The translations under genes and the position numbers were made by a program. This document shows positions 4,472 through 12,440 of a stretch of 64,000 nt of DNA, in pieces (position 1 is the stretch's first letter; every line of letters begins with the position of its first letter). Where the stretch lies: NCBI GenBank assembly GCA_002163155.1, contig MAAO01000006.1, positions 930,001 to 994,000 on the forward strand. The letters are read 5' to 3'. The notes below the pieces were generated by a model. The model was not told the origin of the DNA and did not search any database. It saw only the letters and a program-made list of their open reading frames with translations. Source of the DNA: Halobacteriovorax marinus (GTDB lineage Bacteria > Bdellovibrionota > Bacteriovoracia > Bacteriovoracales > Bacteriovoracaceae).

Positions 4472-5251
4472 ATGGAAAATAGGGCCTTAGTTTTTATCAT
4501 TGTTTTCATTCTCTTCTTTATTCTAGAACGAGTTTTTCCTCGTTATAAAGAACCTTTGAGTGGAGTGGATTCAAGGTTTCGTAAGGCCACAAATCTTACT
4601 CTGATTGCTCTTGGAAATATTTTAGTTCGTATCGTTCTTCCCATGGGTGGAGTAGGCTTTGCTATTTTTTGTCATGAAAACTCCTACGGCATTTTAAATA
4701 TTCTTACAATTTCAGATAATGTGAATATGATTTTTTCAGTGATTACATTGGACTTCATTATCTACTGGCAACATCGACTCTTTCATATTGTTCCTTTTTT
4801 ATGGAGAATTCATCGTGTTCACCATGTAGACATTTTCTTGGACACAACAAGTGGTTTGAGGTTTCACCCTTTTGAAATCTTACTTTCAATGTTCATAAAA
4901 TTTTTCTTCATATTTATCTTAGGAGCGAATCCTATTGGAGTTCTTATTTTTGAAGTGATCTTAAATGGAATGGCCATTTTTAATCACTCAAACCTTGCAA
5001 TTAAAAGTGGTTTTGATCGGGCACTACAGCTATTGGTTGTAACGCCTAATTTTCATGTTATTCACCACTCAAAAAAGAGTCAGTTACATAATACCAATTA
5101 CGGGTTTAATCTGAGTATATGGGATAAGTTATTTGACAGTTTTACTTCTTCAGAAAAATACCTACAAAGTGATTTCGAAGTTGGTCTGGACTCTCATTCA
5201 AAGAAAGAGAGCTTTAATCTCATCAAAATCTTAATGCTTCCTTTTAAATAG
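4472..5251 (+). CDS. Sterol desaturase / fatty acid hydroxylase family protein
   Basis: A 259-residue integral membrane di-iron hydroxylase. The family's histidine clusters are present in order: HRLFH near residue 101, HRVHHVD near 113, and HVIHHS near 194. Hydrophobic segments before and between them would bring the histidines together at the cytoplasmic face. Bacterial relatives hydroxylate lipids such as fatty acids, sterol-like lipids or lipid A acyl chains; the substrate here is unknown. It stands alone, divergent from the suf operon, and is followed by a good terminator. Confidence 0.85.
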   Translation: MENRALVFIIVFILFFILERVFPRYKEPLSGVDSRFRKATNLTLIALGNILVRIVLPMGGVGFAIFCHENSYGILNILTISDNVNMIFSVITLDFIIYWQHRLFHIVPFLWRIHRVHHVDIFLDTTSGLRFHPFEILLSMFIKFFFIFILGANPIGVLIFEVILNGMAIFNHSNLAIKSGFDRALQLLVVTPNFHVIHHSKKSQLHNTNYGFNLSIWDKLFDSFTSSEKYLQSDFEVGLDSHSKKESFNLIKILMLPFK

Positions 5252-5808: not shown

Positions 5809-6717
5809 ATGATACCCTTTGCACAACTCGCAGACCCCAAAATGGCCGAACGGATCACTCAAGAACTAAACAAACAAGGTATACAATCTAGTTACAGCTA
5901 TGATGAAGCCGCTTCAATTTACACTTTAGTTGTTGAAGATCAAGCGAATTTTGAGCAGGCACAGGATATATTCAGAGTAATGATGGGCCTTCCAAAGAAG
6001 TTTGAACCTTCTAAAGAATGGGAGGAAATCCAATCAATTCCTATGGGGATTGTGACTAAGGTTACTATAGGTTTCTGTATCTTAGTTTATGTCTTAAATG
6101 CATTCAAAATATTGCCTGAACTCTATTCTGTTATGAAAATTTCAAGCTCATCTAATGGTCTACCAGAGATTGTGAGCCAGGGACAGTTTTGGCGACTCTT
6201 AACTCCTGCCTTCCTTCACTTTAACTTCATGCATATTCTCTTTAATATGATGTGGATGAAAGACTTGGGAAAAATTATAGAACATGAAAAGAAGTCAAAC
6301 TTTCTCATGCTCTTCATTGTTATAGTGGGGATCGGTTCAAACTTTTCTCAGTTCTTAATTTCAGGACCTAACTTTGGAGGAATGAGTGGGGTCGTATATG
6401 GACTACTTGGTTACTTATGGATGTATAAGAAGTTTAATTCTAACGCCCAGTTCTCTCTACCAAAAAGTGACGTCATGTTGATGATAGGTTGGTTCTTTCT
6501 GTGTCTTATAGGCGTCTTCTCGTTTTCCATTGCAAATATGGCCCATGCTATGGGTTTAACTCTCGGAATGCTCGGAGGTATCTTCTATGGCCTTAAGGAT
6601 GCGAGTGGTTCCTATTCATTAAAGAAATCTCTGCTCTATGTCTTTTTATCTCTTTCGTTACCTGTACTCACTTATGGTGTTGAGATTTTTAAAGTTATAT
6701 TAAAAACAAAGACTTAG
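5809..6717 (+). CDS. glpG: GlpG-type rhomboid intramembrane serine protease
   Basis: A 302-residue rhomboid protease. A cytoplasmic N-terminal domain (about residues 1-70) resembles that of GlpG. It is followed by six membrane segments. The catalytic serine is S193 in GMSG and the catalytic histidine is H246 in AHAMG; H137, H142 and N146 in the second segment match the oxyanion-side residues of E. coli GlpG. All catalytic residues are intact, unlike the second rhomboid-like protein at 50326-51069. It precedes the giant exported protein by 89 bases on the same strand, but a common transcript is uncertain. Confidence 0.9.
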   Translation: MIPFAQLADPKMAERITQELNKQGIQSSYSYDEAASIYTLVVEDQANFEQAQDIFRVMMGLPKKFEPSKEWEEIQSIPMGIVTKVTIGFCILVYVLNAFKILPELYSVMKISSSSNGLPEIVSQGQFWRLLTPAFLHFNFMHILFNMMWMKDLGKIIEHEKKSNFLMLFIVIVGIGSNFSQFLISGPNFGGMSGVVYGLLGYLWMYKKFNSNAQFSLPKSDVMLMIGWFFLCLIGVFSFSIANMAHAMGLTLGMLGGIFYGLKDASGSYSLKKSLLYVFLSLSLPVLTYGVEIFKVILKTKT

Positions 6718-6806: not shown

Positions 6807-9800
6807 TTGAGAGATAATCGCCTAGTTACAACATTCTTTTTAAGTTTGATGCTTATATTTTTAAGCAGTCGAACATTTGCGCACAAACTCCTCTATGAAA
6901 ATAGTAATTCTAAATCACGGGTTGCTACAGCTGTTTACCTTGACGAAGAGTCTGGTCAAATTGTTGTAAAAAAATACTCATGGGATGCTGACTTTGAAAG
7001 AAGTAGAACTTCAAAAGTTCAAATAAAGTTTCCACAGAATGTAAAATCTTTTTCTAGCATGTATAGCTCATTAAGTGAAGACTATGCGGGACTGAGAAGT
7101 TCACAAAAATTTATTAATTTAAATCAGAGATCTAAAGATCTTAAAAAAGAGCTCTCAAGAACAGTTGATGACAAGTCTTCGAAGTTTTCTTCAAGTAGTA
7201 CAGTGGATCTTATTGCCAAGCAAATTCTAAAAACTTCTCCCTATAAAGTGATTGCTCATAGAAAGAAAGGGTTTAACCACAATATCTTCCTACTCAATTC
7301 TGTGACTGGCGAATTCTATATGAAGTCGGGTCGTAAAACAGATTTAAACTTAGGGTCTAGTATTGCTTTTCCAAAAGATCTAGATAGAAGGTTGTATCAG
7401 AGTGATTCAGATAAGTATGACTTATCTAGCCCTTCTAAAATCAAAAATAACCTCTCTCGTATAAAAAGTTCTTTAAAGAAATCAGGTCTAGATTTACGAG
7501 AAGTGAATATTGCTCTCAATCAAATACACGATCTAAGAAGAGAACAACAAAAGAAAATAGAAAAAATGAAAGTTATTCGGTCTATTAAAGATGGCGATGA
7601 AACAACAGAGTTGTTGTTTAACTTTGAAACAGGTGAGTTCTACTATAGAAGAATCGAAGATGGAAAAGTTCAAGATGATCAATTTTTTGATATTAATAAT
7701 GATAAGAACTTAGGTGATTTAAAAGAGAAACTTCGACGTGCAGATCTCTATGATGAAGGTGAATTTAACGATACATTTCAAGAAACTTTTATTAGGCACT
7801 GTGCCGGCAGCTCCTCATTGGATGATCTTCTACCTAATATTGATGGAAAGATTGAGGACATTTTAAAGGTCAATGACGCTATTTGGGATCAATATCTAAG
7901 AAATTCTTTAGCTAAGAAACCAGTTGTTCTAAATGATGGATCCATGGTGCTTGGAATTAATGCTCTTGGTAGAGATCATAATGTGCAAATTGAGTTAGAT
8001 GCTTTAGGTAATATAAAAAATCTAAAATTTCTAAATGAGGACTCTGCAACTAGTGGTGGTGTAGAAATAGTGAAAGTTATCGAGAATGGTAAAGCACTTT
8101 TCAAAATTATTTCATCTGAAACAAATGAAGACCTCTTCTTCTTTGATATGGAAAATAAAAGCGTTATTACGAAACCAAATACTGCGAACTTAGCTGTGTA
8201 TGTGAAGGGTAAGAAAGGGATGTCTAAAGTCTCTAGAAATATGTTTGATAAGAATGTTTTTCAATTAGAGTTTTCCGGTGAAAAATTTAATAGTGTTGGA
8301 AGTCGAATACAATTGTCCTCAGAGAGAGAAAGTCCTTATGTATCTGATATTAAAAAAGGGGATAGTTCGGGCTTTACGTCATTTGTTTTTAGTAACTTCT
8401 TTAGTTTAAGCAGTAAGAGAAATAAAATATCAAAAGAAATTAAAGCAGCTATTAAGCAGCAGAAAAGTACCATTAATAAAGATGGAAAAATACTTTTAAA
8501 AGATAATGAAATTCACTCTACTGTATTACAAATTGTAAGCGATGTTGAGGCTGAGTACCCAAAACTTGATGCTAATGTATCTAAATTAACAGCTAAAACT
8601 TATGAACATTCCTATAAGAGGTTTATCTCAATAATTGTTCCTAGAATGATTAATGATTTAATGCCTGGTGAAGCTGATCAATTTTATAAGGACATAGCAA
8701 AGAAATCTATGAATGGTTTAAATGACTGTTTGCTTAGGGCCTCTAAGAAATCCAACACTGAGGCCTCTACAAAGTGTGTTGATACTTATATGGTGGAAGC
8801 TCCAGTACTAATTGGAGAAGAGCTATTAAAGTTTCAACTTGAGTCAAATAATCAAAGTATCCTAACTGGGAATGCCGTCTTAGAATATAATAAGTGTATT
8901 AAAGAGTTCTATGATAAGTCGAAAGAATTAGACTTTGTAAAAGGATGTCTCTACAGAGCAACTCTACAGTCTATTGATAATAAATTAGAAGACGTAGTTG
9001 GACTCACGCTTAAAGCGATGGAAAAAGAGTACGAAACGCAAGGTAAGGATGTCTCATTCAAGCTCTCAACAGCTTCCATAGACTTAGCGAGGAAGTCTCT
9101 TAGAGGTTGTTATAAGAAAAAAGGATTTATAAAACCCACAGTTTTTTCTGATAAGTATCAATTAGAGAAATTAAATCCTCTTGAAACTGAGAAATTTAAA
9201 CAGGAAATTTTTAGCTGTGTTTCTGAAATAGAAGCAGTAGTGGGAAGAGATGTTTCGGCCACCTTAGTCTCTAATGAATTAAAAGAGATGGCGATAGATA
9301 CTGATGTTAAAAAACAAATTAAACAAAGTGTACTCGTTAGTGGCTATGACAAATGTGTGAATGCTCAGAAAAAGAAAATTGCTATCTTGGAGAAATCTGG
9401 AATTTGGCAAAAAATTGACGTTCAAAAATGCGCAAACTTTGTCACAGTAGTCGCCACTTCAAAAGTTATTGATGAAATGCTTAAAGATAAACTTGGTAGT
9501 GAGCAGTGGGATAAATTACTCGTGAGTGATAAGTCTCCCCATCATGGCTGTTTTAAAGAACTAGAGAACCTAAGTCTTAAAAATTCATTAAAAGAGAAAC
9601 CAAGTAAACTAGATCTTGAGGGAGAGTCTACAAAATGCCTAAAGCAGGGAATCGTTTGGGCATCTTACTATCTAGGAGTACAAGAGTTAGAAAAAACATT
9701 TCAAAGCGACAAACTCTATCGAAAGATAAACCTTTCGAAAGAAAAGAAAGATCTCTTTGCTAAGAAACTTCAGAGTTGTTTCAAAGAAGAAATGAAAGAC

Positions 9801-12440
9801 TTCAAGTCTGTTGCACAAGTGACAGACTCTCTGGCAAAGGTGCAGGACAAATGTACTGTAGCTCTGATCATGGGAAAAGAAGCACAAGTTGATATCTTAG
9901 GTCCTGTGGTAGAGGGAATGCTAGAAGACCAGAATGTAAGTGAAGAAATCATTGCTAAAACAAAAGGTGGAATCATTTCTGCCATGAAAGCTAGGGTTAC
10001 AGATAGACTAAAGAGTGAATCTCTTAGTTTAGATCAAGTGGTAGATGAATTTAAAAAAGTTCAAGGAACTGCTAGTTACTTTGTTGCAGATGCTACAGTA
10101 GATAAATATGTAAGAGATATGGTGAAAGATGAAGCTAAATCTAAAGTTCTTTCTCTATCTCTTCGTAAAAAATTATTTGATGGGGACAGGGGTTATAGAA
10201 ATCAATTACTAAAAGCGAAGGGACCTGCAGAGCTAAAAGTTGTTATTAATAACTTAACAAAAGATGCGGCAGTTGATCTTACCGAAGCAGTAACAAGAGA
10301 AGAGATTACAAAGTTAAAAGAAGAAGGAATTGTAAAAAGCCAAGAAAGAGTAGATGAAATAGCTAAAGATGCTAGAAATTTCATGAAGAATTGTCTTGAT
10401 GCCTTTAGTGATATTGGGACCTTTACTGATCATGTACAAAAGTGTGTCTTAACTACAAAGACTGAAGTGACTTATGATGTCTTTGACAATCAATTACACA
10501 CTATTCTCTTTGAAAGTGAATACGCACACCTAATTTCAGAAGAAGAGAAGAAGTCACTATTAAAGAAGTTTTTAAATAAAGACTTTAAAGACAATATTGC
10601 AAAAGCCTATGAGATTGGTTCTCTTGCAAACCTAAAAGACAACTTTGTCTTAGATGCTACTAGCGCCATTGCTTCTAAAGTTATCGGAGGTTCAATCTCA
10701 GATATAGTATTAAAAGGAAAAGGAGCTGATCATCCTAAGTATCAAGAGAAACTACAGCTTGTTAAAGATATTTCAACTGCGGCCATAAGTTCCTTAGATG
10801 AGTGTCTAGTTATTCAAAAAATTGCTTTGAAAGATAGTAAGAAAGCTATCGACACAAATACATGTATTAATAAATCAAGACTAAAAGCGACTGAGTTAGT
10901 CTTTGAAGATATCTTAGGGAATTTTACTGGTTACTTTGAATTTAGTAACAAGAAGAAAGCGCTCTTAGTTAAAGAGCAGTCAAATGCTCTTAAAAAATGC
11001 GCACAAGTAAATGGTTTGAATATCAAAGGCGCAAAATTCGCTGATGACTTAAATTCTTGTTTAATCGAATCCATATTTGATTATGTAAGAAATAGTGTTG
11101 AGCATGTAACTGCTAATAGTTCTAATATTGATGATATTAAAAATATTGACCTGGTGGCCTATGATCGTTGTATTGAAGACTCTAAACGTGAGCTTGTAAA
11201 AGATCTAAAAAATCAAGGTGTAGCCAGTATTCAGAGAACAGCTCTCTATTCAAAAATAGATAAGGGTGTTGAATTTTGGAACCAGCTCTTTAGTGGGAAG
11301 CACGCAAGCAGCAGTAGTGTCCATGTTCAAAAGGCGATCAAAGTAGTTGAGATCTGTGCTCTAACGAAAGTAGTTCCCTTAGCGATAGATAGCCTCTTAA
11401 CACAAAATACTCTCTCTACTAAAATGAGCTTAAATAGGTCTGAGATCAATTTTGCTAATGATCTCATTGGTAAATTAAAATCCTTCTCTTCAGAGTCTTT
11501 TAAAACAGGATTGTGGATTGATCTTACAGCAAAGGCAAGTGCAACTTCTGCTAGTGCTAAACCCTCTGAAAAAGTGTCTTCGGGTTCTACAGCTGTAAAA
11601 GAGGTTGAAGAAGAATCAATTGATTCCTACTTAAATAAATTTCTACCCATGGTAGGAGATTATCTTAAGAAGATTCATGCTTACGATCCAACAGGTGCTA
11701 AAATTGCAATGAATAGCTTAATTGCAGATATTCAAAAAGCACTTAAGAAGAAAGAAAAGTTAACGCTAGATGATTTAAAAGATATTCTCATGCAATCAGA
11801 TCTTATTGATGTGGTAATTATGTCTGAAATTGCTTCATTTATTAAAAAAGAAGCTAAGGCCCCTTTGACTAAAGAAGGAGTTCCTTTAAGTGTAATTAAT
11901 ATACTCTCTTCTAAGAAAATCCTAGGGCCTATCTTCTCTACATCTAACCCAAGAGGTAAGAAGGCGCTGGAAGATATTAAAAAAGGTTTTGTACGACCTC
12001 TATTAGATGGCAAGAAGCTAAAAGGTATTCCAAAGAATCTGATTAAAGAAGTGAAGATTGTTCTCTCCAATGACACCAAAGTGGGTGGGTTTGTTGAAAC
12101 AATTGCAGGCTCTATCGTACAGAATAAGCTAGATGATAAGAGGCCTGGTAATATTGCCTCGAAAGGTGTTGCAGGACTTATGGGCTACAATCATCGCGAC
12201 TTTGATTGGAAGAATTTAAGAAGAAGAACTCAGTCTGGCGTCAGTAAGAAAAATCAACCAGTGCAAAAAGCAATCGATTATTTTGGGAGTAGTGTTCTAA
12301 GACCTATTCTCTTAAATCAAAAGCTGGGAACTTACACTAAGTATGGATTTTTCTCTAACAAGAAAATTGATATTATGGAAGAGAGAAAAGAAAAATTTGC
12401 AGAAAAGGTTGAAGAATTAATGGAGCTAGATAGAAAATAG
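6807..12440 (+). CDS. Giant exported protein with ten cysteine-pair helical units (1877 aa)
   Basis: Not recognised. The N-terminus is a good signal peptide ending near TFA-HK, so the protein is periplasmic or secreted. Residues 30-600 are mixed and basic, with two stretches that read as poorly conserved repeats (phrases like ...GEFYYR, ...GEFYM). From about residue 640 to 1520 a pattern recurs: a cysteine followed by a hydrophobic residue at the end of a helix, then 15-61 residues, then a second cysteine (often K-C) starting another helix. The pairs fall at C641/C657, C697/C714, C768/C804, C850/C875, C915/C944, C991/C1016, C1196/C1213, C1333/C1353, C1398/C1418 and C1455/C1517. This suggests disulfide-stapled helical hairpins in tandem. 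A Ser/Ala-rich linker (about 1575-1595) precedes a basic C-terminal region. The start is TTG with a weak ribosome site; the first in-frame ATG would leave a very short signal peptide. Confidence 0.8.
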   Translation: MRDNRLVTTFFLSLMLIFLSSRTFAHKLLYENSNSKSRVATAVYLDEESGQIVVKKYSWDADFERSRTSKVQIKFPQNVKSFSSMYSSLSEDYAGLRSSQKFINLNQRSKDLKKELSRTVDDKSSKFSSSSTVDLIAKQILKTSPYKVIAHRKKGFNHNIFLLNSVTGEFYMKSGRKTDLNLGSSIAFPKDLDRRLYQSDSDKYDLSSPSKIKNNLSRIKSSLKKSGLDLREVNIALNQIHDLRREQQKKIEKMKVIRSIKDGDETTELLFNFETGEFYYRRIEDGKVQDDQFFDINNDKNLGDLKEKLRRADLYDEGEFNDTFQETFIRHCAGSSSLDDLLPNIDGKIEDILKVNDAIWDQYLRNSLAKKPVVLNDGSMVLGINALGRDHNVQIELDALGNIKNLKFLNEDSATSGGVEIVKVIENGKALFKIISSETNEDLFFFDMENKSVITKPNTANLAVYVKGKKGMSKVSRNMFDKNVFQLEFSGEKFNSVGSRIQLSSERESPYVSDIKKGDSSGFTSFVFSNFFSLSSKRNKISKEIKAAIKQQKSTINKDGKILLKDNEIHSTVLQIVSDVEAEYPKLDANVSKLTAKTYEHSYKRFISIIVPRMINDLMPGEADQFYKDIAKKSMNGLNDCLLRASKKSNTEASTKCVDTYMVEAPVLIGEELLKFQLESNNQSILTGNAVLEYNKCIKEFYDKSKELDFVKGCLYRATLQSIDNKLEDVVGLTLKAMEKEYETQGKDVSFKLSTASIDLARKSLRGCYKKKGFIKPTVFSDKYQLEKLNPLETEKFKQEIFSCVSEIEAVVGRDVSATLVSNELKEMAIDTDVKKQIKQSVLVSGYDKCVNAQKKKIAILEKSGIWQKIDVQKCANFVTVVATSKVIDEMLKDKLGSEQWDKLLVSDKSPHHGCFKELENLSLKNSLKEKPSKLDLEGESTKCLKQGIVWASYYLGVQELEKTFQSDKLYRKINLSKEKKDLFAKKLQSCFKEEMKDFKSVAQVTDSLAKVQDKCTVALIMGKEAQVDILGPVVEGMLEDQNVSEEIIAKTKGGIISAMKARVTDRLKSESLSLDQVVDEFKKVQGTASYFVADATVDKYVRDMVKDEAKSKVLSLSLRKKLFDGDRGYRNQLLKAKGPAELKVVINNLTKDAAVDLTEAVTREEITKLKEEGIVKSQERVDEIAKDARNFMKNCLDAFSDIGTFTDHVQKCVLTTKTEVTYDVFDNQLHTILFESEYAHLISEEEKKSLLKKFLNKDFKDNIAKAYEIGSLANLKDNFVLDATSAIASKVIGGSISDIVLKGKGADHPKYQEKLQLVKDISTAAISSLDECLVIQKIALKDSKKAIDTNTCINKSRLKATELVFEDILGNFTGYFEFSNKKKALLVKEQSNALKKCAQVNGLNIKGAKFADDLNSCLIESIFDYVRNSVEHVTANSSNIDDIKNIDLVAYDRCIEDSKRELVKDLKNQGVASIQRTALYSKIDKGVEFWNQLFSGKHASSSSVHVQKAIKVVEICALTKVVPLAIDSLLTQNTLSTKMSLNRSEINFANDLIGKLKSFSSESFKTGLWIDLTAKASATSASAKPSEKVSSGSTAVKEVEEESIDSYLNKFLPMVGDYLKKIHAYDPTGAKIAMNSLIADIQKALKKKEKLTLDDLKDILMQSDLIDVVIMSEIASFIKKEAKAPLTKEGVPLSVINILSSKKILGPIFSTSNPRGKKALEDIKKGFVRPLLDGKKLKGIPKNLIKEVKIVLSNDTKVGGFVETIAGSIVQNKLDDKRPGNIASKGVAGLMGYNHRDFDWKNLRRRTQSGVSKKNQPVQKAIDYFGSSVLRPILLNQKLGTYTKYGFFSNKKIDIMEERKEKFAEKVEELMELDRK

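What the first reader, a model, noticed from the sequence alone, without database searches (positions are those of the whole stretch)
6807..12440. Giant exported protein with ten tandem cysteine-pair units
The protein matches no family I know. Between residues 640 and 1520 ten cysteine pairs recur in similar contexts (C plus hydrophobic after a helix; later K-C starting a helix), 15-61 residues apart. This is a readable repeat that looks like disulfide-stapled helical hairpins. A signal peptide puts it in the periplasm or outside. A 5.6-kb exported gene in a predator is a good candidate for a new structural or prey-contact protein.
Basis: partly seen in the sequence, partly recalled or inferred. 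Interest (0 to 1): 0.75.

Follow-up and report, generated by a model that had tools for sequence, protein, structure and literature searches.

The report
Giant exported protein, ten conserved cysteine pairs
A predatory marine bacterium makes a very large exported protein built as a chain of paired helices, probably pinned together by ten disulfide bonds; it belongs to a hitherto unnamed family of such proteins in Bdellovibrio-like bacteria, whose job is unknown but looks structural.

Summary
The ORF at 6807-12440 (1877 aa, TTG start, signal peptide) has 21 cysteines: C332 plus ten pairs between residues 641 and 1517. In 17 full-length orthologs all 21 are invariant (21 of only 47 invariant columns), although distant orthologs share just 21-24% identity. 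Pfam, NCBIfam, PHROGs, PDB sequences and Foldseek give no known relative. AlphaFold models (mean pLDDT 79.6) show a beta-rich head, then an all-helical array in which each cysteine pair spans an inter-helix loop. Most between-pair hairpins are nearly constant in length, while several within-pair loops vary widely. One relative lost both cysteines of pair 3 together, supporting bonds within pairs. The protein belongs to an unnamed superfamily (signal peptide, variable N-terminus, cysteine-pair array, conserved C-terminal domain) found in 49 of 129 genomes of its family and 6 of 240 others in the phylum. Beyond cysteines and flanking hydrophobics its units share no detectable sequence. The neighbouring rhomboid gene is an ancestral neighbour, not a partner. 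Best reading: a stiff, extracytoplasmic, disulfide-tethered helical-repeat scaffold, analogous to Helicobacter Hcp and CagY repeats but unrelated in sequence. A prey-contact role is untested.

The parts
6807..12440 (+). Gene of the giant exported protein, 1877 aa, TTG start
   Evidence: 16 further full-length orthologs
6807..6881 (+). Signal peptide, residues 1-25 (positively charged start, hydrophobic core, TFA|H)
   Evidence: sequence; the orthologs' N-termini look alike, cleavage not tested
6882..8327 (+). N-terminal head, residues 26-507: antiparallel beta modules with some helices; fast-evolving
   Evidence: AlphaFold model; identity by region
7800..7802 (+). C332, invariant in family A but with no partner
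   Evidence: low-confidence loop in the model; counterpart lost alone in relatives
8727..8777 (+). Cys pair 1 (C641-C657)
8895..8948 (+). Cys pair 2 (C697-C714)
9108..9218 (+). Cys pair 3 (C768-C804); both Cys lost together in relative L016
9354..9431 (+). Cys pair 4 (C850-C875)
9549..9638 (+). Cys pair 5 (C915-C944)
9777..9854 (+). Cys pair 6 (C991-C1016)
9855..10391 (+). Cys-free helical stretch, residues 1017-1195
10392..10445 (+). Cys pair 7 (C1196-C1213)
10803..10865 (+). Cys pair 8 (C1333-C1353)
10998..11060 (+). Cys pair 9 (C1398-C1418)
11169..11357 (+). Cys pair 10 (C1455-C1517)
11604..12356 (+). C-terminal domain of the superfamily, residues 1600-1850, all helical, best conserved part between genera
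5809..6717 (+). Neighbouring rhomboid protease gene (GlpG-like); ancestral neighbour, not shown to be part of the system

Best explanation
It is an extracytoplasmic structural or scaffold protein: Sec-exported, oxidised by the cell's DsbA/DsbB system, and folded as a long array of two-helix hairpins. Each disulfide joins the helix that ends one hairpin to the helix that starts the next, closing the loop between them and fixing the stacking angle, so that the roughly 900-residue array becomes stiff and protease-resistant. The array carries a beta-rich N-terminal head (likely the specific contact part, fast-evolving) and a conserved C-terminal domain (likely the docking or capping part common to the superfamily). 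Shown by computation: export signal, cysteine invariance, predicted hairpins, a superfamily with a common C-terminal domain, one whole-pair loss. Inferred: that the disulfides form, the rod or superhelix shape, the scaffold role, the place of action. The confidence given is for scaffold role plus architecture; the architecture alone I hold at about 0.8.
For: Signal peptide and no further transmembrane segment. 21 of 21 Cys invariant in 17 orthologs at down to 21% identity. Predicted fold: every paired Cys in a helix, each pair across a loop. Most hairpins between pairs of nearly fixed length, several loops within pairs variable. Both Cys of pair 3 lost together in L016; subfamilies differ by whole pairs. 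Two DsbB genes, each beside a DsbA-like gene, and further DsbA-like genes in the own genome. Superfamily always combines an array with export signals, and its C-terminal domain occurs only there. No enzyme family and no catalytic motif recognised.
Against: No localisation, expression or redox data. One relative (L082/L136, fragmented assembly) lost a single Cys. A scaffold role is inferred by exclusion and analogy.
Confidence: 0.5

Rival explanations
1. Surface or secreted prey-contact protein: the head binds prey envelope components and the stiff array holds it away from the predator cell. A special case of the scaffold reading.
For: Genus of obligate predators (G001 matches the H. marinus SJ chromosome size exactly); exported; fast evolution, 39-42% within the genus against 75-80% for argS next door; head is the fastest-evolving large domain within the genus.
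Against: Found in only 8 of 48 genera of the family; no outer-membrane anchor or secretion signal recognised; no expression data.
Confidence: 0.2
2. Disulfides run from the second Cys of one pair to the first of the next, closing each constant-length hairpin at its base, and the ends of the series stay free or bond with C332.
For: The between-pair spacing is the most constant one; in the models both kinds of neighbours sit in consecutive helices; subfamily G ends with an extra first-type Cys.
Against: L016 lost both members of pair 3 while keeping their would-be partners 714 and 850; would leave terminal Cys unpaired in most subfamilies.
Confidence: 0.2
3. Protease-resistant inhibitor or buffer protein that protects the predator from hydrolases released into the prey or the medium.
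For: Many disulfides and variable loops suit multi-headed inhibitors (general knowledge); the paralog in the own genome is next to a probable exported EEP-type phosphodiesterase.
Against: No inhibitor family detected; long helical hairpins are unlike known inhibitor repeats (general knowledge).
Confidence: 0.07
4. Substrate or partner of the rhomboid protease encoded just upstream.
For: Adjacent, same strand, in nearly all orthologous loci.
Against: The rhomboid occupies the same place in genera that lack the giant gene, and G023 keeps the giant gene without it; the protein has no transmembrane segment past the signal peptide.
Confidence: 0.03

Closest known systems
Helicobacter cysteine-rich proteins HcpB/HcpC (Sel1-like repeats)
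   Same: Exported tandem two-helix repeats in which a disulfide ties the end of one repeat to the start of the next (PMC3851747, PMC2581425)
   Different: 36-aa Sel1 repeats with a short fixed loop and 138-267 aa in total; no Sel1 match here, period 60-110 aa, loops 11-69 aa, beta head and own C-terminal domain, 1877 aa
CagY middle repeat region (Helicobacter Cag type IV secretion)
   Same: Very large exported protein with helical repeats bearing regularly placed Cys; sheath role proposed (PMC2581425)
   Different: Near-identical 38-39 aa repeat motifs with Lys/Glu runs; part of a secretion system; units here share no sequence beyond Cys and no secretion genes adjoin
HEAT/importin-type and other helical solenoids
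   Same: Stacked helical hairpins; appear among the weak Foldseek rows (importin 13, CAND1)
   Different: E above 0.1 and TM-score about 0.1; cytoplasmic and without disulfides (general knowledge)

Membership tests
Hcp / Sel1-like repeat proteins | Sel1 repeat signature (36-38 aa; Pfam Sel1) | tested here: not met
   No Sel1 or TPR match in Pfam for this protein or six relatives at E up to 1
[quoted passage not shown]
   Cys register and one co-loss fit; bonds themselves not measured
Hcp / Sel1-like repeat proteins | Export signal | tested here: met
CagY / VirB10-type sheath protein | VirB10-like or other type IV secretion domain | tested here: not met
   No such Pfam or NCBIfam match
CagY / VirB10-type sheath protein | High-identity tandem repeats | tested here: not met
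   Units indistinguishable from controls once Cys are masked
Unnamed superfamily described here | Export signal, cysteine-pair helical array and conserved C-terminal domain in one chain | tested here: met
   subfamily C lacks the C-terminal domain

The most novel reading that the evidence does not exclude
A new class of bacterial disulfide-tethered helical array whose strictly conserved odd cysteine (C332) links chains covalently, so that these giant proteins form a cross-linked sheath or fibre in or outside the predator's envelope.
Probability: 0.15. Interest if true: 0.85.

Novelty: new variant of a known kind. Interest (0 to 1): 0.6.

Why it matters
Repeat proteins with intramolecular disulfides are rare (a 2008 paper knew of only three repeat proteins, PMC2581425), so it offers a testable case of how strongly oxidised giant scaffolds are made, and a candidate structural component of a predator's envelope.

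Tried and rejected
Rhomboid-giant module: rejected by co-occurrence and lack of a transmembrane segment. C-terminal domain as a general sorting tag on other cargo: not supported, seen only in large open frames of this kind. Known family: Pfam, NCBIfam, PHROGs, PDB sequence, Foldseek on PDB and viral models, and VIA-align gave no credible match; the VIA rows are all Z 7.1 or less, which for helical models may mean only a common arrangement, so a known fold is not excluded. Sequence repeat beyond cysteines in this protein: not found with Cys masked; a weak remainder exists in subfamily G. Two genome-contig scans for named relatives found nothing; that test needs short conserved peptides and is weak, so presence outside the phylum was not really tested. 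No paper on this protein turned up in the held library.

Full report
What was checked. The ORF at 6807-12440 (+) is intact, 1877 aa, TTG start, with a signal peptide of about 25 residues. The array is not fully continuous: Cys-free stretches of about 180 and 120 residues lie between pairs 6/7 and 7/8.

Chance. Seventeen full-length sequences (this protein and 16 orthologs) from seven genera were aligned; an eighth genus, g58, has a contig-end fragment next to argS (L071). Identity to the window protein is 39-42% within the genus and 21-24% outside. Only 47 columns are invariant and 21 of them are cysteines; every cysteine of the window protein is invariant, and 10 of the 17 have no other cysteine. 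The first Cys of a pair has a hydrophobic residue at -3 (9/10) and +1 (10/10), the second at +1 (9/10), against 40% background. Seven of nine between-pair gaps lie within 35-55 aa, P = 5e-5 for random placement.

Anatomy. AlphaFold2 models with 17-18 sequences reach mean pLDDT 79.6 for residues 26-720 (pTM 0.59) and for 678-1877 (pTM 0.43). The head (26-507) is made of antiparallel beta modules with some helices; from about 520 on nearly everything is helical. All twenty paired Cys lie in helices and each pair spans an inter-helix loop, with small extra elements inside the loops of pairs 2, 3 and 10. Across orthologs the loop within a pair is fixed for some pairs (16, 36 and 25 for pairs 1, 3 and 6) and varies widely for others (17-39, 16-50, 28-65, 11-35, 26-69 for pairs 2, 4, 5, 8, 10), whereas seven hairpins between pairs are nearly fixed (40; 49-54; 45-55; 38-42; 47-48; 45; 34-37). 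So the natural repeat runs from the second Cys of one pair to the first of the next, and a bond within a pair tethers successive hairpins.

Pairing. In relative L016 both Cys of pair 3 are replaced (E and I) in an otherwise alignable stretch; the other array positions are kept, except the second Cys of pair 7 and the first of pair 8, which are absent together with the segment between them. Other subfamilies also differ by whole pairs (8 pairs in the 1290-1430 aa paralogs, 7 in L067, 10 or 12 plus one Cys in subfamily G). This favours bonds within pairs, but rests on one clean event. One counter-example, L082/L136 from a fragmented assembly, lost a single Cys. C332 has no partner; its counterpart is lost alone in L127, L135 and L084 and is also missing in L016. 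S-S distances could not be read because coordinates were not supplied.

Relatives. The protein belongs to a superfamily: signal peptide, variable N-terminus, cysteine-pair array and a C-terminal domain of about 250 aa (residues 1600-1850 here). The domain, searched as profile A8, is in 49 of 129 genomes of the family and 6 of 240 others of the phylum, nearly always in open frames of 960-2060 aa unless a contig ends. Subfamily C (1086-1094 aa, L066, L067, L069) matches the first part of the array and lacks the C-terminal domain; in subfamily F the domain is not convincingly detected. The own genome has one detected paralog (1336 aa, C1 near 170 kb, L017), next to a probable exported EEP-type phosphodiesterase: invariant E, D.N and DH positions, Exo_endo_phos in 2 of 7 members at E 0.002, below the curated standard. 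In subfamily G (for example L123) the repeat is cleanest: ten to twelve pairs with a period near 62. An HMM of the L123 units scores members of this protein's family (L065 3e-5, L058 1.5e-4) and the related L075 (2e-8), while no reversed control is better than 0.4; part of that signal is the cysteines themselves.

How much repeat is there? Profile-profile comparison of seven hairpins of this family gives a mean score of 15.1 with Cys and 10.3 without, the latter no better than controls (10.5). In subfamily G a small remainder survives without Cys (12.4 against 10.2). The units are thus either very old repeats or hairpins that converged on one register; subfamily G mildly favours the former.

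Known families. No credible match in Pfam, NCBIfam, PHROGs, PDB sequences (single and profile), Foldseek on PDB and viral models, or VIA-align. The nearest working analogy is HcpB/HcpC of Helicobacter, where a disulfide ties the end of one helical repeat to the start of the next (PMC3851747), and the Cys-bearing helical repeats of CagY, a filament sheath (PMC2581425). It is not a member of either: the Sel1 signature was tested and is absent, and CagY's near-identical repeats and secretion domains are absent too.

Organism. Genome G001 of the same genus has a contig of 3,435,933 bp, the exact size given for the H. marinus SJ chromosome, so the genus is most likely Halobacteriovorax, and strain SJ carries an ortholog at about 1.214-1.220 Mb (inference from size identity).

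Surroundings. The gene sits between a rhomboid protease gene and a convergent argS, near the SUF cluster, in almost all orthologous loci. The rhomboid is ancestral at this place: it is there in genera without the giant gene, and G023 has the giant gene but no rhomboid at the locus. The protein diverges fast (39-42% within the genus, argS 75-80%, sufB 88-90%). Two DsbB genes, each beside a DsbA-like gene, and further DsbA-like genes show the means to oxidise it.

Verdict. The most likely role is a stiff extracytoplasmic scaffold; prey contact is possible but rests on the organism's way of life only.

Noticed in passing
window 6807-6809 and orthologs L015, L020-L025, L056-L058, L061, L062, L065: The giant gene appears to start with TTG in 14 of 17 orthologs (first start codon after the stop, directly before a signal peptide). 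A conserved weak start may hold expression low.
   Followed up: partly
L017:4192-10020 (own genome C1 near 167-173 kb); also L018, L019, L077, L080, L084, L085: The shorter paralog is followed by a probable exported EEP-type nuclease or phosphodiesterase in several genera, a conserved pair that may act together.
   Followed up: partly
L072, L073, L074, L076, L118: Subfamily E has 29-32 cysteines, with nine or so more in the N-terminal part, nearly all conserved among its five members.
   Followed up: no
window residues 44-507 (about 6936-8327): The head seems to hold several copies of a beta-hairpin motif (AVYLDEESGQIVVKKY, FLLNSVTGEFYMKSG, LLFNFETGEFYYRRI, IELDALGNIKNLKF); not tested statistically.
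   Followed up: no
window 4472-5251: The fatty acid hydroxylase gene two places upstream diverges as fast as the giant gene (39-43% within the genus) beside very conserved SUF genes.
   Followed up: no
G000:C11 near 166-168 kb and G000:C7 near 146-148 kb: Two separate DsbB genes, each beside a DsbA-like gene, in the own genome.
   Followed up: no
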